Source: Phycisphaerae bacterium (GTDB lineage: Bacteria > Planctomycetota > Phycisphaerae > UBA1845). Taken from it: a stretch of DNA of 35,716 nt. Within the stretch, counting starts at the first letter, position 1, and each line of letters begins with the position of its first letter. The stretch lies in assembly GCA_016929015.1 (NCBI GenBank), contig JAFGJQ010000470.1, positions 1 to 35,716 on the forward strand, read 5' to 3'. Under the pieces are notes generated by a model, which saw only the letters and a list, made by a program, of their open reading frames with translations, ran no database searches and was not told the DNA's origin. This document shows, one piece after another, positions 2,475-13,221 of the stretch. The position numbers were made by a program, and so were the translations under genes.

Positions 2475-2642
2475 CGCCGACGCACACGCGCCGCCGGCCA
2501 GACCGACCCTGCCTTCGCGCCGCGGTCCCGGCACGGTCGCCGCGGTACGATAGGCCCATTATTGACTTAACCCCGTCTCCGTCTTAGAGTTGTCGCGGAA
2601 TCTCGCCCTCGCGCCCAGACGTGTTTGATCTGGAGAGAGCCC

Positions 2643-3695
2643 ATGATCTCGCATCCGGTTCGCTTCTCCAAACTCCGGACGCTGGTGTTCCTTTTTGCGA
2701 TCCTCACCGTGCTGGCCGGGGCCGCGTTGATCTGGCTGGGGGTGGATGCGGTCATTCGGCACGGTCAGCCGTGGACGACACTGATACCGTTTCTGGGGTA
2801 CGGGATCGCTCTGATCACCGCCGCCATCGTGATGATGGCCTTTACCGTGTTGCTGGTAAAGATCGAATCTCACTCCAACCGCCAGTACAACCAGACCCTG
2901 GAACTCTGCGAGCTGATCCGCAAACAGCAAAACGTGCTGGGGTCCATTTCCCAGAGCAGCCGGTTGTCGGAAGCGACCAAGTCCATCACGTCGCGCGAGG
3001 AAGAGCGGGAGGCCGTTCGTTCCGCCATTCGGGAGGAAATGGCCCGCGAAGACTGGGAGGCGGCGCTCTATCTGGTGGACCAGATGGAGCATCGTTTCGG
3101 CTATCGGGACGAGGCGGAGCGCCTGCGGGAACAGGTGATCGAGGCGCGCACGGCCGACATGCGGAACCGGTTGAACGAAGCACTGGAGCGCATCGAGGAG
3201 TGCTGGAACCAGTTCCAGTGGGACCGCGCACGTCAGGAGATTGAACGCCTGATGCGCGTGCTTCCGGACGACAAGCACACCAAGCGCCTGCCGGAGGAGC
3301 ACCAGCGACGCCGGGAGGCCCGTAAGGAGGAATTGCTGGCGGCGTGGCACCAGGCCGTCAAGCAGACCGGGCTGGAAGACGACATTGACGTGGACAAGGC
3401 CGTCGAGATTCTGGCCGAACTGGACGGCTACCTCACGCGGGAGGAGGCACGGGCGCTCGAAGAATCGGCTCGCGGCGTCTTCCGGGCAAAGCTGGCTCAG
3501 TACGGCACGCAGTTCGAGCTGGCCTGCAAGGACAAGCGATGGCGCGAGGCCCTCGAGATCGGTTTGCAGATCGTCGAGGAGTTTCCCAACTCCAAGATGG
3601 CCCATCAGGTTCAGCAGATGGAAGGTGCGCTTCGGCAGCGCGCGGGTCTTTCCGGCGATGTCGAGGTGACCGCCGGCCCCTCGTCCGATAAGTAA
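2643..3695 (+). CDS. Hypothetical membrane protein with two N-terminal TM segments and a long helical/TPR-like cytoplasmic region
   Basis: Hydrophobic stretches LVFLFAILTVLAGAALIWLGV and LIPFLGYGIALITAAIVMMAFTVLLV, then a charged helical region. Confidence 0.8.
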   Translation: MISHPVRFSKLRTLVFLFAILTVLAGAALIWLGVDAVIRHGQPWTTLIPFLGYGIALITAAIVMMAFTVLLVKIESHSNRQYNQTLELCELIRKQQNVLGSISQSSRLSEATKSITSREEEREAVRSAIREEMAREDWEAALYLVDQMEHRFGYRDEAERLREQVIEARTADMRNRLNEALERIEECWNQFQWDRARQEIERLMRVLPDDKHTKRLPEEHQRRREARKEELLAAWHQAVKQTGLEDDIDVDKAVEILAELDGYLTREEARALEESARGVFRAKLAQYGTQFELACKDKRWREALEIGLQIVEEFPNSKMAHQVQQMEGALRQRAGLSGDVEVTAGPSSDK

Positions 3696-3925
3696 TCCAG
3701 CCCGGTTTTCAGCCATTTGGGCACGGCCGGCGCGGGGTGGGCGCCCGCCGGGGTCGGTCCTCTCTATCAGCAATTCAACACCGCCGATCCGGGTTCCGAT
3801 AAGCACGCAGGCGCCCCGGGTGCGTCTCGGGGAAGGGAGCGCAGAAAAACGCGGTCCGAGATTGCCCGGGATTGGAAACGAATTGTACGGTTGGGCAGGA
3901 AGCAGCCATGATCGGACGTTGAGCG

Positions 3926-5302
3926 ATGCGGGAGGCATCCTGTCAATCACCGGATCACCGGCCATTCGCCCAGCGTATGCGGGCGTCCGTGCTCGGTTTG
4001 CAGTGCAAGTCCACCCTTCTGGTGGTCGCGCTGACGCTGAGCGTGTCCGCTCTGGTGGGCGGGCTGTTCGTTCGTTTCGCGGGCCGGCCCACGGCCCGCA
4101 TTCAGCAGACACACGCTCGGAACCTGGCGGCCATGCTGGCCGAACTGGCCGCCCAGCCGCTGGCCCGGAACGATGAAGGCGGCCTGAAGAGCCTCGCGGA
4201 CCGATTCGGACGGGGTGAACCGCTTCTGTTTGTGGCGATCTGCAACAGGGATGGGCGTCCGCTGGTGTCCGCCACCAAGGCGGGTGTTCCGTTGCGGTCC
4301 TTCTCGTTGCAGGAGGCGGCCCGCTTTCGAGAGACGCTGGGGAAACCCACGCTGCGCCGGGCCCGACCCGGAATTCCGACCTTTCTCGACGTGAGTTATC
4401 CGGTGAACGCGCCGGCGGGACAGGCGGGGTGCCCCTCGAGGTTAATCGGATACGTGCGGGTGGGGTTCGACGTCCACACGATGCTGCGCGAGTTCGCAGG
4501 CGTTATGGATCTGGTGATGGGCATCGGGCTGGTGGCCGTGCTGATCACCATCCCCTTTGCATACCTGGTGGTCCGGCAGATCGTGCTGCCGTTGGACGAG
4601 CTGTCGCGTACGGCCGATCGGTTGGCGCAGGGGGACCTGTCCGCCCGGTCGACGGTCGATCGCAGTGACGAGATCGGGCGTCTGGCCCGTTCGTTTAACC
4701 ACATGGCCGAGGTGATGGAGCGCCATGAATCGCGGGTTACGGCGCTGAACGCGGATCTGGAAGAACGCGTGCGGCGCCGCACGGACCAGTTGCGGGAGAT
4801 GGCGCTGCGCGATCCGCTGACCGGGTTGCACAATCGGCGGCATTTCGACGAGGTGTTGTCACGCAGCGTGTCTGAAGCCCGGCGGTACGGCAGCCCGCTG
4901 TCCTGTCTGATGATTGACCTGGATGATTTCAAGGCGGTGAATGATCGCTTCGGGCATCCGGTGGGGGACCGGGCGCTCATCCTGGCGGCCCAGACCATTT
5001 CCACCCAGTTGCGGGCCTCCGACGTGGCGGCGCGGTTCGGGGGCGACGAGTTCGTCGTGCTGCTGCCGCAGACAGACTGCCGCCAGGCCGAAGTGCTGAG
5101 CCGCCGTATCGCGGACGCGTACAAGACGCTCCTGCGCGAGAACCTCCCGCGGGTCTCCGGCGGCCTGAGCGTCGGCGTGGCCGCCCTGGCCGATGCGTCC
5201 TCCGGCGCTTCCGACGCTCTGCTCCGTGCCGCAGACCGCGCTCTGTACGATGCAAAGCAGCGCGGCAAGAACCGGGTCGAAATAGCGGTTTCGCCGGTCT
5301 GA
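3926..5302 (+). CDS. Membrane-anchored HAMP-GGDEF diguanylate cyclase
   Basis: Two TM segments, HAMP, DPLTGLHNRRHF, intact ARFGGDEF with RxxD (RASD) I-site five residues upstream; alternative start at 3977. Confidence 0.93.
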   Translation: MREASCQSPDHRPFAQRMRASVLGLQCKSTLLVVALTLSVSALVGGLFVRFAGRPTARIQQTHARNLAAMLAELAAQPLARNDEGGLKSLADRFGRGEPLLFVAICNRDGRPLVSATKAGVPLRSFSLQEAARFRETLGKPTLRRARPGIPTFLDVSYPVNAPAGQAGCPSRLIGYVRVGFDVHTMLREFAGVMDLVMGIGLVAVLITIPFAYLVVRQIVLPLDELSRTADRLAQGDLSARSTVDRSDEIGRLARSFNHMAEVMERHESRVTALNADLEERVRRRTDQLREMALRDPLTGLHNRRHFDEVLSRSVSEARRYGSPLSCLMIDLDDFKAVNDRFGHPVGDRALILAAQTISTQLRASDVAARFGGDEFVVLLPQTDCRQAEVLSRRIADAYKTLLRENLPRVSGGLSVGVAALADASSGASDALLRAADRALYDAKQRGKNRVEIAVSPV

Positions 5303-5497
5303 ATCCCTTCTTTCGTCCGAACTCCGACCTGCTTTCGTCGCATTTCTCTGGACCGCAGGGCTTGGCTGCGGCTTCGCGGGGCCGCTTCCTCTGGGCGATC
5401 TCGTTTGTAATCGCGGGCTCACCGACGGTGTGCTATGATGGATGGGGACGAGGTCGGCGGGTGGGAAGCCCCTGGGCCGGGGCGGAGGTGAGCACGC

Positions 5498-5908
5498 ATG
5501 TGGGCGGCGATCGGCAAATACGTGGGCGCCAAGGTCCTGACCGCCATCATCGTTGTGGCGTCGGCCGGCGCGGTCTTCTGGTTCTACCGGCACCCGGAGC
5601 ACCTCGAGGCAATCTGGAGCGTGGTGCGCAAGGCCCTGGCCTGGCTGGGCTTTGTGATTGTGCTTCCGTGGGCGCTGTTCTTTGTGGTGCCCTGGGTCCG
5701 CAAACAGGAGAGCAATCTGGTCGCGGCCCTGATGCTGGTGGCGTATCTGCTGCTGGACGTGCTGGTTGCGCTGTACCTCGCGAGCTGGCACGTGCACGGA
5801 GCGCTGAGCTGGATCGTGCTCATCCTTGGTTTCCTTGCAGCAGGAGTTTATAATTTTCTGGTGTGCGAGACCATCGACAACCGCCTGGAGGCGTCGGAGG
5901 GTCTCTGA
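5498..5908 (+). CDS. Multi-TM hypothetical protein, first gene of the putative ESCRT-like operon
   Basis: 136 aa with about four hydrophobic segments; 47 nt upstream of the kinase gene on the same strand. Confidence 0.75.
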   Translation: MWAAIGKYVGAKVLTAIIVVASAGAVFWFYRHPEHLEAIWSVVRKALAWLGFVIVLPWALFFVVPWVRKQESNLVAALMLVAYLLLDVLVALYLASWHVHGALSWIVLILGFLAAGVYNFLVCETIDNRLEASEGL

Positions 5909-5955
5909 TACCGTCACCGCTTGGCGCGGACGCGACAAGTGAAGAGGGCCGAGAG

Positions 5956-6978
5956 ATGGCCGTTCTGAAATCGGGGGATCGAATCAACAACTACCTGCTC
6001 GAGGAGGTGCGGGGCACGGGCAGTTTTGCGCAGGTCTGGAGCGCGCGGCACCACACGCTGGAGAAACGCGTGGCGATCAAGGTGCTGACGGACCCGCAAT
6101 ACGTTCGAGCGTTCCGGCAGGAAGGTGTGGTGGTCCACGGACTGCGGCACCCGAACATCGTGCGGGTGGAAGACATCGACGCGTACGATGATCCGCCCTA
6201 CCTCATCATGGAGCTCGTCGACGGACCGTCGCTCCGCCAAGTGATCGACGCGCATCCCCAGGGCCTGCCTGTGGGGGTGTGCGAAATCGTGCTGCGCGGC
6301 GTCTGCAAAGCGCTGGTTGCAGCCCACGAAGCCGGGCTGATTCACCGCGACATCAAGCCGGCGAACATCCTGCTGAACCATCCGGCCGATCAGATCGGCG
6401 GGTTGCCGGAGCACGCGGTGAAGGTGGGGGACTTCGGCCTGGGCCGGGCGTCCACCGTGACCACCGCCTCGATCATGCAGTCGGGCAGCCTGCAGACGGA
6501 CGAGGGGCGGAGCATCGCGGGCACGCTGGCGTATATGTCGCCGGAGCAGCGCGAGGGCAAATCGATCGACCCGCGAAGTGATCTGTATGCCTGCGGGATC
6601 GTTCTGTTCGAGATGCTCACGGGCAGTCGACCGGCCGGGATCGAAATGCCGAGCGAGATTCGGCCGGACGTTCCGCCGCGGCTGGACGACGTCTTCCGCC
6701 GGTGCTACACGCGGCTGGAGCACCGGTTCCCCTCGGCGAAGGCCGTGTTGGATGCCCTGCGGGAGCCCGGGCGGCGAGCGGCCGGCTCGGACAAGACGGC
6801 AGTCGCCATGTGTCCGGCCTGTCATGGACAGGTCGACGGTCGGGACCAATTCTGCATTCATTGTGGGCATCAACTGGTGGATACTGTTCCGCGATGCCGG
6901 GCGTGCCACGCATTCGTCAATGCGAGCGACCGGTATTGCATCTTCTGCGGCAGCCGATTGGGGACGGGAGGTGACTGA
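5956..6978 (+). CDS. Ser/Thr protein kinase with C-terminal double zinc ribbon
   Basis: HRDIKPANILL, GDFGLGRA, AYMSPEQ; C-terminal CPACHGQ...CIHCGHQL and CRACHAF...CIFCGSRL. Confidence 0.93.
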   Translation: MAVLKSGDRINNYLLEEVRGTGSFAQVWSARHHTLEKRVAIKVLTDPQYVRAFRQEGVVVHGLRHPNIVRVEDIDAYDDPPYLIMELVDGPSLRQVIDAHPQGLPVGVCEIVLRGVCKALVAAHEAGLIHRDIKPANILLNHPADQIGGLPEHAVKVGDFGLGRASTVTTASIMQSGSLQTDEGRSIAGTLAYMSPEQREGKSIDPRSDLYACGIVLFEMLTGSRPAGIEMPSEIRPDVPPRLDDVFRRCYTRLEHRFPSAKAVLDALREPGRRAAGSDKTAVAMCPACHGQVDGRDQFCIHCGHQLVDTVPRCRACHAFVNASDRYCIFCGSRLGTGGD

Positions 6979-6981
6979 CCG

Positions 6982-7236
6982 ATGGGCATGGGCCATCCGG
7001 TTTCGATCATCTTCTGGGCGATCGTCGTGGTGGCCGGGGTGTTGTTTGTCCTGGCATTGCTGGCTAGTCTGATATTCCAGGGCGTGTCCGGTCTGGTTGG
7101 GGGGCGGTCGCGAGGGGTGGCGAAGGCGCTGCGGTCCATGCCGACGAATGTTGTACGGTTCTGCTCGAATACCAAATGCAGGCATCCGAATCGGCCGGAT
7201 GCCCGCTTTTGCGGCCAGTGCGGCCAGCGGTTGTGA
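6982..7236 (+). CDS. Small membrane protein with C-terminal zinc ribbon
   Basis: TM PVSIIFWAIVVVAGVLFVLALLASLIF then CSNTKCRHPNRPDARFCGQCGQRL; starts 3 nt after the kinase stop. Confidence 0.85.
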   Translation: MGMGHPVSIIFWAIVVVAGVLFVLALLASLIFQGVSGLVGGRSRGVAKALRSMPTNVVRFCSNTKCRHPNRPDARFCGQCGQRL

Positions 7237-8693
7237 CGGTGACGGCATCGAACAGCGGACAACTCGGTGGCCTGAATCCGAACGCGGCGGCCGCGTTGCG
7301 CGCAGAGACGGAGTTCCTTGCGGGCGTGGAGGTGAACCTGGAGGCGGCCAAGGGGCGACAGCTTCGCGGCGACCGCTGGACGACCGTGCGTGATGACGAG
7401 GGCGATGCCTTGCGGGCGGCGATGGCCGGCCGGCGGATGTATGATCGCGGGTTGCTCAAGCAGTTGCCGCATAATCGGCGGGTGGTCCTGCACGGGTCGG
7501 AGCGGCGGTGGCTGCTTCTGCGCCGCAAGACCGGGGTGGCCGTCGGCAGCGTGCTGGCTTCCTTCGATGCGCTGTTGTCGCCGGAGGGGCAGCCGGGTCC
7601 AGTGAGTCTGGCCGAGCTGACCGATCACGTGCGGAAACTCATCGGCGAAGCCAAGGTTCCGCATGTGATCGGCGTGTGTTCGCCCAGCGGCTTTACGGAA
7701 GAAGTCCTGCAATCGCGCCTGGATGTGCCCAACGTCACGCTCGTGTTGGCGTGGCCGCGCCCGGGAGGCGGCTGGGGCCTGGCGACCCCTGGCGGAACGT
7801 TGAGCGAGGAGCTGCGCAACCTGTTTGATCCGGAGGGGGTCAGCCAGAAAATCGCCCGGGCCCGGCGGGAGATTGAGGCGTCCGGCGTGGATCTGCTGAC
7901 CGGCGGGCTGTCGGCGCGGACCATCGCCGAGCGAACCGGGTTGCCGGATTCCATTGTGTCCGCGGCGTTCGCCCTCGTGGCGACGGAGGACGGCGAGCTT
8001 CGGGTGGCCCGTAAGGGGGGCGAGGTGTTGTTGTATCGCGGGGCGCCCGCGCGAATCCAGGAGAGCGGTTCCATGAGTGTCGTTGATCGCATCCGGCAAC
8101 TCTTCTCCCGGGAAGGAGAGGAGTCCCAGAAAATCAATATGCTCTCTGAACGCCGGGCCCGGCTCAAACAGCGGCGCGACCGGCTGTACGAGGACATCTC
8201 CACGCTGGAAAAGCGGGAAGGCGAACTGCTGGCCCAGGGCCGATCGACGCAATCACAGGTGACGCGGCGCAGACTGGCGGCCCAACTGGCCCAGTTGCGC
8301 AAGGACATCGCCCGGCAGAACACCACCGCGAACATGCTGAACCAGCAGATCAACATCCTGAGCACCGACATCCACAATCTGACCCTGATTCAACAGGGCC
8401 AGATGGCCCGGCTGCCGGACACCGAGGAGCTGACCCAGAACGCCGTCAAGGCGGAGGAGATGCTGGAGACGCTTCGGGCGGACGCGGACATGGTGGGCAG
8501 CCTGGAGACCGGCCTGGCGGACGCGGCCACCAGCTCCGAGGAACTGGCCATCCTGAAGGAATTTGAGGCGGCCGCGGAGCGGGGAGCGGTGGAGCCGCAG
8601 GAGCCGGAGGACGTTCGCAAGGCCATGGCCGAGTTCGACGAGCCGGCCCCGCCGGCGGACAAGCAGAAGGGGCGAGCCGAGCCGGAAGCGTAG
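7233..8693 (+). CDS. Large protein with N-terminal region, winged-helix-like segment and C-terminal ESCRT-III (Snf7)-like coiled coil
   Basis: GTG start overlapping the preceding TGA (GTGA); GLSARTIAERTGLPDSIVSAAFALV helix-turn-helix-like; C-terminal long helical hairpin followed by acidic/proline-rich tail. Confidence 0.8.
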   Translation: MTVTASNSGQLGGLNPNAAAALRAETEFLAGVEVNLEAAKGRQLRGDRWTTVRDDEGDALRAAMAGRRMYDRGLLKQLPHNRRVVLHGSERRWLLLRRKTGVAVGSVLASFDALLSPEGQPGPVSLAELTDHVRKLIGEAKVPHVIGVCSPSGFTEEVLQSRLDVPNVTLVLAWPRPGGGWGLATPGGTLSEELRNLFDPEGVSQKIARARREIEASGVDLLTGGLSARTIAERTGLPDSIVSAAFALVATEDGELRVARKGGEVLLYRGAPARIQESGSMSVVDRIRQLFSREGEESQKINMLSERRARLKQRRDRLYEDISTLEKREGELLAQGRSTQSQVTRRRLAAQLAQLRKDIARQNTTANMLNQQINILSTDIHNLTLIQQGQMARLPDTEELTQNAVKAEEMLETLRADADMVGSLETGLADAATSSEELAILKEFEAAAERGAVEPQEPEDVRKAMAEFDEPAPPADKQKGRAEPEA

Positions 8694-8724
8694 CGCCTGG
8701 ACCATTAATCCCAGGGACCCTGGC

Positions 8725-9333
8725 ATGGACTTTTTCGACTGGCTGACGAAGCGCAAGAAGCCGATTTCGCAGATGTCGCGGACGGAGTTGCGGCGGCAGG
8801 AGCTTCTGCTGGAGAAGGACCGCAACCAACTTCTCAAGAAGATCACGAAGATCGCGGGAGACAAGCAGACGCTCTTCGAGCGGGGCGCCAAGGAGGCCTC
8901 CCCGGAGGTGCGCCGGGTGCTGGCGCAGGAGTTTGAGCTCAAGACCACCGAGCAGTTGATGCTGGGCCGCCAGCTCAACATTCGCAGCAAGGAGATGATG
9001 ACCGTCTCCCGGCTGCGGATGCTGCGGGAGAACGCGGACCGGGCTCGGGGCGCGGGAAGCAAGCTGGGCCTGATCAGCGAGAAGGACATGCTTCGCCTGG
9101 GCCGGCTCATCGAGAACGATTCGATCCGTACGGAGGCGTATCAGGAACGGCTGGACGAGGTGCTGTCCATCGGGGCGGAGGTGGATCAGGGATCCACCGG
9201 CCTGTCCGAGGCGGGGCAGGCGGTGCTGTCCATCTGGGAAAAGATGGATGCCGGGACCTTGAAGGACAGTAGCGAGGCGTTCGAGGAAGCCGATCGGCGG
9301 GTGCGCGAGCATAGCGCCCCGGCCGAAGGGTAG
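8725..9333 (+). CDS. Small charged coiled-coil protein, putative ESCRT-III-like
   Basis: MDFFDWLTKRKKPISQ... basic N-terminal helices, more acidic C-terminal half; same strand and size class as neighbour 9565-10167. Confidence 0.75.
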   Translation: MDFFDWLTKRKKPISQMSRTELRRQELLLEKDRNQLLKKITKIAGDKQTLFERGAKEASPEVRRVLAQEFELKTTEQLMLGRQLNIRSKEMMTVSRLRMLRENADRARGAGSKLGLISEKDMLRLGRLIENDSIRTEAYQERLDEVLSIGAEVDQGSTGLSEAGQAVLSIWEKMDAGTLKDSSEAFEEADRRVREHSAPAEG

Positions 9334-9347
9334 AAAGGCAGGATGCG

Positions 9348-9545
9348 ATGGCGGGTCCTCTGCGGCGCTCGACTCACAACCGGATGATCGCCGGCGTGTG
9401 CGCCGGCCTGGCGGAGCATTTCGGGCTGGACCCGACGCTGCTGCGCGTGATCTACGTGCTGGTTTCCCTTCTCTCGGCGGCGTTTCCCGGGCTGCTGGTG
9501 TACATCGTGCTCTGGGTCGTGATTCCCGAAGGCGGGGATTCCTAA
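9348..9545 (+). CDS. pspC: PspC domain protein
   Basis: LRRSTHNRMIAGVCAGLAEHFGLDPTLLRVIYVLVSL...LVYIVLWVVIPE matches PspC family hallmarks. Confidence 0.93.
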   Translation: MAGPLRRSTHNRMIAGVCAGLAEHFGLDPTLLRVIYVLVSLLSAAFPGLLVYIVLWVVIPEGGDS

Positions 9546-9564
9546 GCGGCGGGTGAGGTGCGTA

Positions 9565-10167
9565 ATGGCGTTGTTCAAATCGTCGGAAGAGCGGCGGATC
9601 GAGCGGGACATCAAGATCCGGCAGGGCATCCGGCGGATCGAGAAGGCCATCCGCGAGCAGAACAAGTTCCAGGATGAGTTCATCCGCAACGCGCAGCGGG
9701 CCCGGCAGATCGGCGATTCGGCCCAGTACGCCTTCATCCGCAACTCATTGAAGAAAACCGCCCTGGTCAAGCGGGTGCTCGAGCGGCAGTTGCTCTCGGT
9801 CAAGAACGCCTTGCTCATCAAGCGGCAGGCCGAGGCGTCCGCCGATTTCGCCGGGGCCATGGGCATGATGGCCCGGGAGATCGGCCGGCTGTTCGGCGAG
9901 ACCGACCTGCTCAAGACCCAGGCGGAGTGGGAAAAGGCCATGGTGCAGTCGCAGTCCATGGAGGAGCGAATGTCCATGTTCCTGGACACCGTGGAGGACA
10001 TTGCCGCCCAGGACGCCGAGTCGGCCACCGAGCTGGTAACGGACGACGAGATCGACCGCATGATCGAGGCCGAACAGGCGGCCGAGCACCAGAAGGAGCT
10101 CGGCAAACTCGCCGGCCTGCGAGCCGAGCTCGATTCCCTGAAGGGCGAAGGGGAAAAACAGAAGTAG
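9565..10167 (+). CDS. Small charged coiled-coil protein, putative ESCRT-III (CHMP/CdvB)-like subunit
   Basis: MALFKSSEERRIERDIKIRQGIRRIEKAIREQNKFQDEFIRNAQRARQ... basic helical hairpin, acidic C-terminal half, terminal amphipathic LAGLRAELDSLK. Confidence 0.75.
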   Translation: MALFKSSEERRIERDIKIRQGIRRIEKAIREQNKFQDEFIRNAQRARQIGDSAQYAFIRNSLKKTALVKRVLERQLLSVKNALLIKRQAEASADFAGAMGMMAREIGRLFGETDLLKTQAEWEKAMVQSQSMEERMSMFLDTVEDIAAQDAESATELVTDDEIDRMIEAEQAAEHQKELGKLAGLRAELDSLKGEGEKQK

Positions 10168-10200
10168 CGACGAAGCGCCGCGGCCGAGCCGTTTCCTTTT

Positions 10201-10235
10201 GACATTGGACATTTGACATTCGACATTTGGCATTT
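10201..10235. repeat. Heptameric tandem repeat, 5 x GACATTN-like
   Basis: GACATTG GACATTT GACATTC GACATTT GGCATTT read directly. Confidence 0.9.
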
Positions 10236-10249
10236 CGCACGGCGGAACC

Positions 10250-11368
10250 ATGCCTGTCTCCTTTGCCACATTTGACCGTCTCAAAACCAAGGGCGTCGGC
10301 GCCTACAAGAACGGCGACTACGCGGCCGCCAAGTCGTACCTGGTCGAGGCGGCGGAGTGCATGGTGGAGCTGGCGGAATCGGCGGAATCGGCGGAGGTGC
10401 GCCGCCAGCGGGAGGAGATTGCGGCGGAGCTGATCGACCTGGCCCGCGACTGCGACCGGCTCAAGAGCGCCCCGCCGCGCCGACGACAGGCCGTCCGCGA
10501 AAAGGACGACGACAGCGGCCGCGACGCGTCGGAATGGGTCGTTCGCGAGAAGCCGACCTTCGGGTTCGACGACATCGCCGGCCTGGAGGACGTGAAGCAG
10601 GAAATCCGGCTGAAGATGATCTATCCGTTCGCCCACCCGGAGCTGGCGAAGCAGTACGGCATCCCGGTGGGCGGCGGCGTGCTCTTGTACGGCCCGCCGG
10701 GCACAGGCAAGACGATGATGGCCAAGGCAGTGGCCAAGGAGCTGGAGGCCGTCTTCTACCTGATCAGCCCGGCCCAGATTCTCAGCAAGTGGGTGGGCGA
10801 GGCGGAGCAGAACATCAAGAAACTGTTTGACGCCGCCAAGGCCGATTCAAAATCGATCATCTTCATTGACGAGGTGGAGGCCCTGGTCCCGCGCCGGCAA
10901 TCGGACGGCTCGACGGTGATGCAGCGCGTGGTGCCGCAAATTCTGCAGGAGCTGGAGGGGTTTGATCGGGCGACCGACCGCGCCCTACTATTCATGGGGG
11001 CCACCAACAAGCCGTGGTTGCTGGACGAGGCCATGCTCCGCCCGGGCCGGCTGGACACTCGCGTGTACATCGGCCTGCCCGACGCTCCCGCCCGCTTCAA
11101 GCTGCTGGAAATCTACCTGGGCGGGCGCCCGCTGGCCGCGGACGTGGATTTCGGGGCGCTGTGCGACCGGCTGGAGGGCTACAGCGGGGCCGACATCAAG
11201 AGCATTGCCCAGCAGGCGGCGGCCATTCCGTTCATGGAGTCCGTGGGCGGGGCCGAGCCGCGCCCCATCGCCATGGCGGACCTGTTGAAGGTGATTCAGG
11301 CGAACCCGCCGTCCGTCAAGCCGTCGGACCTGGTCCGATTCGAGAAGTTCATGGAATCGGGAAGATGA
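10250..11368 (+). CDS. Vps4/CdvC-like AAA ATPase with N-terminal MIT-like domain
   Basis: Walker A GPPGTGKT (10691-10714), pore loop SKWVGEAEQNIKKLF, Walker B IIFIDEVEAL, sensor-1 GATNKP, LRPGRLD; N-terminal FDRLKTKGVGAYKNGDYAAAKSYLVEAAECMVEL three-helix MIT-like pattern. Confidence 0.88.
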   Translation: MPVSFATFDRLKTKGVGAYKNGDYAAAKSYLVEAAECMVELAESAESAEVRRQREEIAAELIDLARDCDRLKSAPPRRRQAVREKDDDSGRDASEWVVREKPTFGFDDIAGLEDVKQEIRLKMIYPFAHPELAKQYGIPVGGGVLLYGPPGTGKTMMAKAVAKELEAVFYLISPAQILSKWVGEAEQNIKKLFDAAKADSKSIIFIDEVEALVPRRQSDGSTVMQRVVPQILQELEGFDRATDRALLFMGATNKPWLLDEAMLRPGRLDTRVYIGLPDAPARFKLLEIYLGGRPLAADVDFGALCDRLEGYSGADIKSIAQQAAAIPFMESVGGAEPRPIAMADLLKVIQANPPSVKPSDLVRFEKFMESGR

Positions 11369-11372
11369 AGCG

Positions 11373-11414
11373 GAATTGTGAATTGCAAATTACGAATTGC
11401 GAATTACGAATACC
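11373..11414. repeat. Heptameric tandem repeat, 6 x GAATTNC-like
   Basis: GAATTGT GAATTGC AAATTAC GAATTGC GAATTAC GAATACC read directly. Confidence 0.9.
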
Positions 11415-11451
11415 GTCAAGGGGGCGCGCGGCGGCGTGGTGACGACGCGGG

Positions 11452-13221
11452 GTGGACGTCATGGCGGGCAAGTTGAACCTTGAGAACTTTTTTCGCGATG
11501 CTTCGGCGGTGGCCGCGTTGCTGCCTGCGTCCGAGGTATTCGGTTTCCTGACGCGCAGTATCAACCTGCCGTCCGCGTGGGCGGCGCTGGCCGGCGACGA
11601 GCATGGCGGGCAGCGGGTGGCGGCCCCGGGGGCCGTTCTGGGCCGCGAAGGCGCGGATGAGGTTCTGCTGGTTCGGGTCACACCGCTGGAAGTGCACATC
11701 ACAGAGGACGGGCTTCTCTCGAAAGACCGGTACCAGTGCCGTGCCAGTCTGGACGTGCGGCTGACCCTGATTCCCGAGCGAAGCGAGATGAGCTTGTTCC
11801 GCAACGCGCTGGTGGGCAGTGCGTCGGCCGTCCGCCTGGATTCGCTGGCGCGGCACGTGCAGAGCCGGATTCGAGAGACCCTGGTTGCCCTGGCGGGCGA
11901 ATCCGACGCGGCCGCGCTGGTCGATGGCGCGGCGCAGGAAGCCTGGGCGCAGGCCCTGACGGCAGCGTTGCAGCCGGTGTGTTTCCAGGCAGGGATGACG
12001 CTTGCCGGTGCGCCGGTCGTCTGTTTCGAATCTCCCACGTTGCAGCAGGTGCGCGTGACGGAAGACCGCGCGGCGCGGCGCCGGGCGGAACATCAGGCGC
12101 GTCGCCAACTGGAGACGGCGCTGGAAACGGCGCAGACGGCACACCTGGGGCACCTGGAATCCATGCTGACGCGGCTGAAGGGGCTGGCCGAGGCCTCGCC
12201 GGACGTGGAACTGCCCGACCTGATGCGAACGTTTTCCGAGCGGCAGCGCGGAGAGTTGTACGAAGCGCTGTTCGCCACGGAGCCGGCGGGAACGGCATCG
12301 CAGTGGATCGTGGCGGCCACCAGTGAAGGATTGCACTTCTTCGCGGTGTCCGCACCGGACGAGCCGAAGCGGACAATCTCCATCGCTCCGGAGGTGGGCG
12401 GTGCGCGGAGCGTGCAGCACGCGCGCACGGCCGACGGGCAGGGCGTGCTGATGGTGGGTGCGGCGCGGGGCGTGTACGAATACTCCGCGGAGGGGGTCGA
12501 GCCGCGGGCAGTGTTCCAGGTCGCCGGATCACGTGAGGTGCGCGGCGGTTTCAATGCGGTGGCCGTCGCGGGTGAGCACGTATGGGGCTCACACTCGGAG
12601 CTGGGCCTGTTGTGCTGGCATCGCGAGCGGCCCGACGCGCCGCAAGCGGGCGCGGAGGCCCTCACGGGTCCGGCTCAGGCGGTGCGCGGCGTGGCGTTTC
12701 ACGATGGCCGGGTCTGGTGTGCGATCGATGCGAGCGTGGTCGCCCTGCCGGCGGACGTGCCGAAGGCCGAACCGGTTCTGTATCGCGGTAGCCGGACGAT
12801 TCTTACGGCGCTGGCGGTGGGCCCGGGCGGCGTCTACGCCGGGAACGCGGAGGGCGAAGTCCTGCATTGGCCGCCTGACAAGCCGGATGCGCCGACGGTC
12901 CTCCACGCGGGCAATCACCGCCCGGCGGAATCGATCCACGTGCTCACGACGGCCGGCGTGGACCGGCTGTTCTTCACGGATACGTCGTTGGCGGTGTATG
13001 CGCGGGTGCGGGGCGACAGTTATGCGTGCCGGTACGAGGCGGGGGGCCAGACGCTGCGCCGCGTGGAAGTGGCGCCGGATGTAGTTGTGGCCACCAACGA
13101 CGTGCGTGATCGGCTTGTTTGCTGGCAGCCGTCGCAGCCTGCCCGGCCCCGTGCGGTGGTGCCGGTGGCGCGGCTCACGCGCCGATCGGTGCAGGACGTG
13201 TGTATCGTGCCGCAGGCGTAG
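11452..13221 (+). CDS. SPFH/band-7-like protein with C-terminal beta-propeller-like repeats
   Basis: N-terminal VRVTPLEVHITEDGLLSKDRYQCRASLDVRLTLIPERSEM... followed by helical Ala/Arg-rich segment and repeated beta/Trp-rich blades; alternative ATG start at 11461. Confidence 0.7.
   Translation: MDVMAGKLNLENFFRDASAVAALLPASEVFGFLTRSINLPSAWAALAGDEHGGQRVAAPGAVLGREGADEVLLVRVTPLEVHITEDGLLSKDRYQCRASLDVRLTLIPERSEMSLFRNALVGSASAVRLDSLARHVQSRIRETLVALAGESDAAALVDGAAQEAWAQALTAALQPVCFQAGMTLAGAPVVCFESPTLQQVRVTEDRAARRRAEHQARRQLETALETAQTAHLGHLESMLTRLKGLAEASPDVELPDLMRTFSERQRGELYEALFATEPAGTASQWIVAATSEGLHFFAVSAPDEPKRTISIAPEVGGARSVQHARTADGQGVLMVGAARGVYEYSAEGVEPRAVFQVAGSREVRGGFNAVAVAGEHVWGSHSELGLLCWHRERPDAPQAGAEALTGPAQAVRGVAFHDGRVWCAIDASVVALPADVPKAEPVLYRGSRTILTALAVGPGGVYAGNAEGEVLHWPPDKPDAPTVLHAGNHRPAESIHVLTTAGVDRLFFTDTSLAVYARVRGDSYACRYEAGGQTLRRVEVAPDVVVATNDVRDRLVCWQPSQPARPRAVVPVARLTRRSVQDVCIVPQA

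What the first reader, a model, noticed from the sequence alone, without database searches (positions are those of the whole stretch)
8073..10167. Three consecutive ESCRT-III-like coiled-coil proteins with divergent sequences
The C-terminal part of 7233-8693 (MSVVDRIRQLFSREGEESQKINMLSERRARLKQRRDRLYEDISTLEKREGEL...), 8725-9333 and 9565-10167 share a layout: short N-terminal aromatic/aliphatic plus basic segment, long basic helical hairpin, then an acidic helical C-terminus. This is the charge and helix layout of CHMP/Snf7 subunits. Several divergent subunits side by side suggest a hetero-oligomeric filament rather than the single-subunit PspA/Vipp1 arrangement.
Basis: inference. Interest (0 to 1): 0.82.

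Follow-up and report, generated by a model that had tools for sequence, protein, structure and literature searches.

The report
Bacterial ESCRT-III/Vps4-like membrane-remodelling operon
A planctomycete bacterium and dozens of its relatives carry an operon that looks like the ESCRT machine which cuts and repairs membranes in archaea and eukaryotes: three filament-type proteins beside a Vps4-type motor. A recent survey of ESCRT evolution says this pairing does not occur in bacteria.

Summary
Three adjacent genes, E1 (C-terminal part from 8073), E2 (8725-9333) and E3 (9565-10167), encode basic helical hairpins with acidic C-terminal helices, conserved in dozens of Phycisphaerae. The ESCRT-III idea is largely supported. 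E3 relatives hit Pfam Snf7 (best E 4e-5, below its cut-off). The E3 profile matches PspA (E 9e-6) and, weakly, archaeal ESCRT-III (E 0.002-0.003). Its AlphaFold model ranks Sulfolobus CdvB first among 350,542 PDB chains, without a significant E-value. E1 and E2 are homologous to each other (E 1e-9) and to E3 (E 1e-4). E1 also carries a winged helix, as CHMP7 does. The next gene is a Vps4-type ATPase: MIT-like N-terminus, AAA domain, Vps4_C above cut-off, tree position beside archaeal Vps4. All 17 genomes with a detached ATPase gene still hold exactly one E3. The gene downstream has an SPFH domain, as in the PspA-YdjI membrane-stress complex. Best reading: a hetero-oligomeric bacterial ESCRT-III/Vps4 membrane-remodelling or repair machine, in about 19% of sampled Planctomycetota and 3% of one sampled Bacillota group. 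Filament formation, membrane action and cellular role are inferred, not shown.

The parts
7233..8693 (+). E1: alpha/beta N-terminal domain, winged helix (residues about 204-270, 7842-8042) and ESCRT-III-like hairpin (8073-8693), an arrangement reminiscent of CHMP7
   Evidence: AF2; Foldseek winged-helix hits prob 0.99-1.00 and VIPP1 7o3x_B prob 0.95; E1cc homologous to E2; split into wH and hairpin ORFs in L171
8725..9333 (+). E2: ESCRT-III-like helical protein, paralogous to the C-terminal part of E1
   Evidence: hhalign E2-E1cc E 8.7e-10; orthologues in about 20 Phycisphaerae loci; Bacillota E2-like genes match at E 2.6e-6
9565..10167 (+). E3: core ESCRT-III/PspA-superfamily subunit with acidic C-terminal tail ending in a MIM1-like leucine motif
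   Evidence: Snf7 hits in relatives, PspA profile match E 9e-6, Foldseek CdvB/CHMP, tail motif
10250..11368 (+). Vps4/CdvC-type AAA ATPase: MIT-like domain (about residues 1-75), AAA core (GPPGTGKT, SKWVGE pore loop, RPGRLD), Vps4_C (residues 336-369)
   Evidence: NF041006 CdvC best NCBIfam hit E 3e-71; PF09336 29.0 bits, cut-off 21.3; MIT; tree; motifs
11452..13221 (+). SPFH/Band-7-like domain plus beta-propeller-like C-terminus; probable membrane-microdomain partner
   Evidence: L022 orthologue PF01145 24.6 bits, cut-off 23.6; L001 E 8.5e-4; the window's own N-terminal part gives no hit; follows the ATPase gene in most Phycisphaerae loci
6982..7236 (+). small membrane protein with C-terminal zinc ribbon
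   Evidence: PF13240 27.1 bits, above cut-off; conserved position
5956..6978 (+). Ser/Thr protein kinase with double zinc ribbon, probable regulator
   Evidence: PF00069 E 3e-37, PF12773; conserved position
5498..5908 (+). small hydrophobic multi-TM protein, conserved operon member
   Evidence: orthologues at the same position; TM segments read by eye
2625..3695 (+). membrane-anchored helical protein, peripheral and less constant neighbour
   Evidence: orthologues upstream in L011, L012, L014, L029, L031, L032

Best explanation
This is a bacterial ESCRT-III/Vps4-type membrane-remodelling machine. E3 is the core filament subunit, and E2 and the hairpin part of E1 are further subunits. All bind the inner face of a membrane through short amphipathic N-terminal segments and polymerise through helical hairpins. 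E1 also carries a winged helix and is probably the nucleating or recruiting subunit, as CHMP7 is in eukaryotes. The MIT-like domain of the ATPase binds the acidic, MIM1-like tail of E3, and the ATPase hexamer pulls subunits into its pore to remodel or disassemble the filament. The SPFH protein and the small membrane proteins position the complex, and the zinc-ribbon kinase regulates it. The likeliest job is envelope membrane repair or remodelling, as for PspA-YdjI; division or vesicle formation remain possible. Shown here by computation: gene order, homology of the subunits, fold predictions, ATPase type and co-occurrence. Inferred: polymerisation, membrane binding, tail-MIT contact, and cellular role.
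For: Pfam Snf7 is the family matched by most E3 relatives (6 of 29, best E 4.4e-5). E3 profile against PspA E 9e-6 and against archaeal ESCRT-III 0.002-0.003, reversed controls 0.12 or worse, while the accepted PspA-ESCRT-III pair itself scores only about 0.1 with the same small profiles. Foldseek: ranks 1-3 are S. islandicus CdvB, rank 5 CHMP2A-CHMP3. E1 hairpin hits VIPP1 and its winged helix is clear. The ATPase has Vps4_C above cut-off, best NCBIfam hit CdvC, an MIT-like domain whose top PDB hit is chitin synthase 1, an MIT-containing protein (E 2.2e-5), and groups with archaeal Vps4 rather than Cdc48 or PAN. E3 and the ATPase travel together: same-strand neighbours in 31 of 38 loci; 17 of 17 genomes with separated genes still have exactly one E3; distance correlation 0.94. 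MIM1-like tails: 10 of 88 strict against 0.6 in shuffles. SPFH partner in both phyla; SPFH protein YdjI anchors PspA in B. subtilis (PMC8581546).
Against: The window's own E1-E3 have no Snf7 match at E<=1, and the L052 relative stays below Snf7's gathering score (21.0 bits, cut-off 27.3). Foldseek E-values are 0.06 or worse, and BAR domains score nearly as well. E1/E2 against archaeal ESCRT-III is weak (0.006-0.2). The strict MIM1 motif is absent from the window's E3, and relatives are not independent. The ATPase lies far below the CdvC equivalog cut-off (240 of 650 bits).
Confidence: 0.74

Rival explanations
1. A divergent PspA/Vipp1-type (phage-shock-like) membrane-stress system that has independently acquired a Vps4-like ATPase. 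The subunits belong to the ESCRT-III superfamily but not to the Snf7/CdvB branch.
For: E3 matches PspA better than archaeal ESCRT-III (9e-6 versus 0.003). SPFH-domain partners as in PspA-YdjI. The own genome lacks PspA.
Against: No member of the E3 or E2 alignments shows PF04012 among its listed Pfam hits, whereas Snf7 is the family hit by most E3 members. A MIT-bearing Vps4-type ATPase, MIM1-like tails and several paralogous subunits are Snf7/CdvB-type traits. E3 and PspA coexist in about 8 of about 20 E3-bearing genomes (hand count).
Confidence: 0.18
2. Generic or BAR-like helical scaffold proteins, unrelated to ESCRT-III, that happen to be substrates of a Vps4/katanin-like ATPase.
For: BAR and F-BAR domains are among the Foldseek hits. 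Long-helix proteins give inflated similarity. In some bacteria a Vps4-like ATPase is reported with snf7 displaced by a TPR/6TM protein (PMC11237479).
Against: Snf7/PspA profile matches aligned along the hairpin, with reversed-profile controls far weaker; CdvB ranked above BAR; hairpin lengths and charge layout fit ESCRT-III.
Confidence: 0.06
3. An immunity or signalling island (kinase, SPFH, AAA ATPase; in Bacillota also kinase, PP2C-like and vWA-like neighbours) in which the coiled-coil proteins are effectors or scaffolds.
For: Kinase next door; Bacillota neighbours that look like a kinase, a PP2C phosphatase and vWA proteins by eye; PADLOC kinase hits.
Against: PADLOC hits are to generic kinase and AAA models; E2, E3 and the SPFH gene give none, and E1 only weak coiled-coil matches (E 0.002 or worse). 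Single copy in the genomes tested and strongly conserved together, unlike typical fast-turnover defence islands.
Confidence: 0.04

Closest known systems
Archaeal Cdv / ESCRT system (CdvB plus CdvC/Vps4)
   Same: ESCRT-III-type hairpin gene directly upstream of a MIT-AAA-Vps4_C ATPase; winged-helix component; several subunits; ATPase in the same branch of the tree
   Different: Bacterial host; no CdvA seen; three subunits in a row; winged helix fused N-terminal to the hairpin (E1) instead of C-terminal as in CdvB; SPFH and kinase partners; ATPase well below the CdvC equivalog cut-off
Bacterial PspA/Vipp1 (phage-shock system, e.g. PspA with YdjGHI in B. subtilis)
   Same: Superfamily fold; SPFH partner with zinc ribbon (clearest in the Bacillota operons); small membrane proteins
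   Different: Not matched by PF04012; several distinct subunits; dedicated Vps4-type ATPase
Eukaryotic CHMP7 / Snf7 / Vps2-Vps24 with Vps4
   Same: CHMP7-like winged helix plus ESCRT-III domain; hetero-subunits; MIM1-like tails; MIT-AAA-Vps4_C ATPase
   Different: Sequence very divergent; the E1 N-terminal alpha/beta domain has no assigned counterpart
Vps4-like ATPases transferred to bacteria (Ravi et al. 2024, PMC11237479, e.g. ACB74714.1)
   Same: Vps4-type ATPase in bacteria
   Different: There snf7 is reported displaced by an unrelated TPR/6TM protein; here ESCRT-III-like genes are retained next to the ATPase

Membership tests
ESCRT-III / Snf7 (PF03357) | Match to the Snf7 profile at the curated cut-off | tested here: not met
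   Window proteins: none at E<=1. E3 relatives: best E 4.4e-5; L052 21.0 bits against cut-off 27.3, similar to two Sulfolobus ESCRT-III proteins in the same test (24.2, 21.2 bits)
ESCRT-III / Snf7 (superfamily) | Long alpha1-alpha2 hairpin followed by further helices | tested here: met
   AF2 models of E3 and E1; Foldseek CdvB/CHMP/VIPP1 among the hits, E-values not significant. E2 not modelled; homologous to E1cc
ESCRT-III / Snf7 | Basic N-terminal half, acidic C-terminal half | tested here: met
   +7/-15, +9/-8, +11/-13
ESCRT-III / Snf7 | C-terminal MIM motif | tested here: inconclusive
   Strict MIM1 in 10 of 88 E3 against 0.6 in shuffles; relaxed form in 66 of 88 against 14.6; window has the degenerate LRAELDSLK; none in E2
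ESCRT-III / Snf7 | Polymerises on membranes and is remodelled by Vps4 | not testable with these tools
   needs biochemistry
Vps4 / CdvC | AAA core with Vps4_C oligomerisation domain | tested here: met
   PF00004 134 bits, PF09336 29.0 bits over 21.3; motifs
Vps4 / CdvC | N-terminal MIT domain | tested here: inconclusive
   N-domain profile against archaeal Vps4 N-termini E 3e-5 to 7e-5, reversed 0.03-0.04; PDB top hit chitin synthase 1 2mpk E 2e-5, Calpain-7 0.047; PF04212 reached only by L052, below cut-off; TPR_2 hits more members weakly
Vps4 / CdvC | Groups with Vps4 rather than Cdc48, PAN | tested here: met
   SH-aLRT 94 for a clade with archaeal Vps4-type, excluding Cdc48 D1/D2 and PAN; eukaryotic Vps4, katanin and spastin not in the tree; unrooted
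CdvC equivalog NF041006 | Equivalog score 650 | tested here: not met
   240 bits
PspA/Vipp1 (PF04012) | Match to PspA_IM30 profile | tested here: not met
   No PF04012 match in the own genome at E<=0.001 nor among listed hits of E2/E3 alignment members, although profile-profile similarity of E3 is strong

The most novel reading that the evidence does not exclude
Bacteria (Planctomycetota and some Bacillota) possess a complete, old, hetero-oligomeric ESCRT-III/Vps4 system with a CHMP7-like winged-helix subunit and SPFH partners. The ESCRT-III plus Vps4 pairing would then not be an archaeal-eukaryotic invention confined to those domains, and this lineage would link PspA and Snf7.
Probability: 0.5. 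Interest if true: 0.92.

Novelty: new variant of a known kind. Interest (0 to 1): 0.83.

Why it matters
[quoted passage not shown] An operon that keeps both, in a phylum where FtsZ is nearly absent (0 of 157 good genomes), would change where and how often ESCRT-III met Vps4. It also offers a bacterial system in which hetero-ESCRT filaments can be studied. No publication describing it was found in the open-access library searched, which does not cover most subscription journals.

Tried and rejected
Sequence-only searches of window E1-E3 against Pfam, NCBIfam and PADLOC gave nothing useful. hmmsearch of the E3 and E2 profiles against PDB sequences gave only histidine kinases and designed or unrelated helical proteins; the more divergent E3 set reached CdvB2 (0.021) and CHMP2A/CHMP3 (0.8-1.7) among unrelated hits. 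An early E2 profile drifted to include E1; it was rebuilt from clean alignments. PspA replacement (mutual exclusion of E3 and PspA) was considered and not supported: they coexist. A universal division role was considered: the phylum lacks FtsZ, but E3 is in only 55 of 297 species, so it cannot be the general divisome. Archaeal contamination of the MAG was considered and rejected: the operon recurs in dozens of Planctomycetota assemblies, and the E3-ATPase-SPFH part is on a chromosome-level one (L001, CP070718.1), among bacterial genes. E2 was not modelled separately (only two structure jobs).

Full report
WHAT IS THERE. The window lies in a contig of a 5.8 Mb genome whose closest relatives are Phycisphaerae (Planctomycetota) MAGs. 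On the + strand runs a gene row: a small membrane protein (5498-5908), a Ser/Thr kinase with zinc ribbons (5956-6978), a membrane/zinc-ribbon protein (6982-7236), E1 (7233-8693), E2 (8725-9333), E3 (9565-10167), an AAA ATPase (10250-11368) and a 589-aa protein (11452-13221). Orthologues occur in the same order in dozens of Phycisphaerae assemblies. Protein identity within this group is 65-84% for E3, 55-72% for E2 and 28-60% for E1.

THE THREE SUBUNITS. The window proteins have no useful Pfam match. With relatives, the picture changes. Within the E3 family, Snf7 is the Pfam family matched by most members (6 of 29, best E 4.4e-5). The L052 member, which lies directly upstream of its own ATPase, was found with the Snf7 model in a whole-genome search at 21.3 bits. 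In the same search two Sulfolobus ESCRT-III proteins scored 24.2 and 21.2 bits. None of these three reaches the cut-off of 27.3. In profile-profile comparison E3 matches PspA at E 5e-5 (29 sequences) and 9e-6 (88 sequences), and archaeal ESCRT-III at 0.002-0.003. Reversed-profile controls for these pairs lie at 0.12-0.49. The accepted homologous pair PspA-ESCRT-III scores only about 0.1 with the same small profiles, so this test is hard and E3 passes it better than the textbook pair. The lowest reversed control in the whole set was 0.0074, so the ESCRT-III value alone is only suggestive. E1cc and E2 are homologous (E 1e-9). Pooled, they match E3 over 124 columns at E 1e-4. E1/E2 against archaeal ESCRT-III directly is weak.

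STRUCTURE. The AF2 model of E3 (pLDDT 75.6) has four helices including a 43 + 59 residue hairpin. Foldseek places S. islandicus CdvB at ranks 1-3 of 350,542 chains and CHMP2A-CHMP3 at rank 5. E-values are 0.06-0.2, and BAR domains follow closely. The E1 model (pLDDT 78.9) shows an alpha/beta domain, a winged helix (about residues 204-270), a short helix (283-291), a 42 + 46 residue hairpin and a C-terminal helix. Foldseek finds winged helices at probability 0.99-1.00 and VIPP1 at 0.95. In locus L171 the winged-helix part and the hairpin part are two adjacent genes, followed by E2, E3 and the ATPase. Winged helix followed by an ESCRT-III domain is the layout of eukaryotic CHMP7 (established knowledge).

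THE ATPASE. It carries AAA (134 bits) and Vps4_C (29.0 bits, cut-off 21.3). Its best NCBIfam hit is CdvC, E 3e-71 over residues 14-369. Its N-terminal 75 residues match archaeal Vps4 MIT domains at E 3e-5 to 7e-5 (reversed 0.03-0.04). A profile of 22 N-domains has as its top PDB hit 2mpk (chitin synthase 1), E 2.2e-5, with Calpain-7 at 0.047. Chitin synthase 1 of Saprolegnia has an MIT domain (PMC8851075). The tree puts the ATPase in a clade with archaeal Vps4-type ATPases and away from Cdc48 and PAN (SH-aLRT 94). Eukaryotic Vps4, katanin and spastin could not be included.

THEY BELONG TOGETHER. In loci fetched by E3 alone, 31 of 38 have a same-strand AAA gene within the short flank, often 0-65 bases away. 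In 17 genomes whose ATPase locus showed no E3, every one has exactly one E3 elsewhere, although only 55 of 297 sampled Planctomycetota have E3. Pairwise distances of E3 and ATPase correlate at 0.94 over 55 loci; vertical inheritance also contributes to that. E3 tails carry MIM1-like leucine motifs above shuffled expectation. In Bacillota about 9 of 299 sampled genomes have clear E3, mostly followed directly by the ATPase; in the three operons read in full it is preceded by an E2-like gene and an SPFH/zinc-ribbon protein (PF13421, 51-75 bits, cut-off 24). In the Phycisphaerae operon the 589-aa protein has an SPFH/Band-7 domain (L022 above cut-off). In B. subtilis the SPFH protein YdjI brings PspA to the membrane together with two integral membrane proteins (PMC8581546).

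HOW IT MOST LIKELY WORKS. E1-E3 form a composite filament on the cytoplasmic face of a membrane. E1, with its winged helix, recruits or nucleates. E3, with the conserved tail, recruits the ATPase through its MIT-like domain. The ATPase hexamer extracts subunits, which drives filament turnover and membrane deformation. The SPFH and small membrane proteins fix the site, and the kinase regulates it. The homology, fold and co-occurrence steps are computed here; polymerisation, tail binding, membrane action and role are inferred. Repair or envelope-stress remodelling is preferred over division because of the SPFH link and the patchy distribution. The absence of FtsZ from the phylum (0 of 157 good genomes) keeps a division role possible.

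KNOWN OR NEW. [quoted passage not shown] another says that in bacteria with a Vps4-like ATPase snf7 is displaced (PMC11237479). The operon described here combines both in bacteria. It works like an ESCRT-III/Vps4 system. Strict membership fails on curated cut-offs (Snf7, CdvC equivalog, PspA) and is met on Vps4_C, fold prediction, charge layout and gene pairing. It is therefore filed as a new variant of a known kind.

Noticed in passing
L185:8171-10039 (also L165:2056-3504): In one Bacillota genome an E3-like domain is fused to FtsK alpha and FtsK/SpoIIIE ATPase domains (623 aa) directly downstream of an E3 gene, where the Vps4-like ATPase usually sits. It suggests a link to chromosome segregation or division.
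   Followed up: partly
L049:4488-5783, L170:8750-10015 and similar loci: Many planctomycete loci carry a second AAA ATPase upstream of E3, in a branch next to Aenigmatarchaeota MIT-AAA ATPases.
   Followed up: partly
L170:11590-13098, L049:1004-2596: The E1 N-terminal/winged-helix module also occurs without the hairpin, fused to a MerR-type HTH, near E3 and ATPase genes.
   Followed up: partly
L172 (about 2750-13100): In Bacillota the operon sits among proteins that look like PP2C phosphatases, a kinase and vWA proteins (read by eye; not tested against profiles).
   Followed up: no
window 10168-10249 and after 11368: Short repeated motifs in the gaps flanking the ATPase gene, seen as repeats in the translations of ORFs that cross them (MSNVKCPMS-like and NCELQITNCELRI-like).
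   Followed up: no
G000 whole genome: No PspA (PF04012) and no FtsZ (TIGR00065) match in a 92% complete genome.
   Followed up: yes
L014: A MAG titled Alphaproteobacteria carries the full Phycisphaerae-type operon on a 558 kb contig at 70% ATPase identity; probably mislabelled or misbinned.
   Followed up: no
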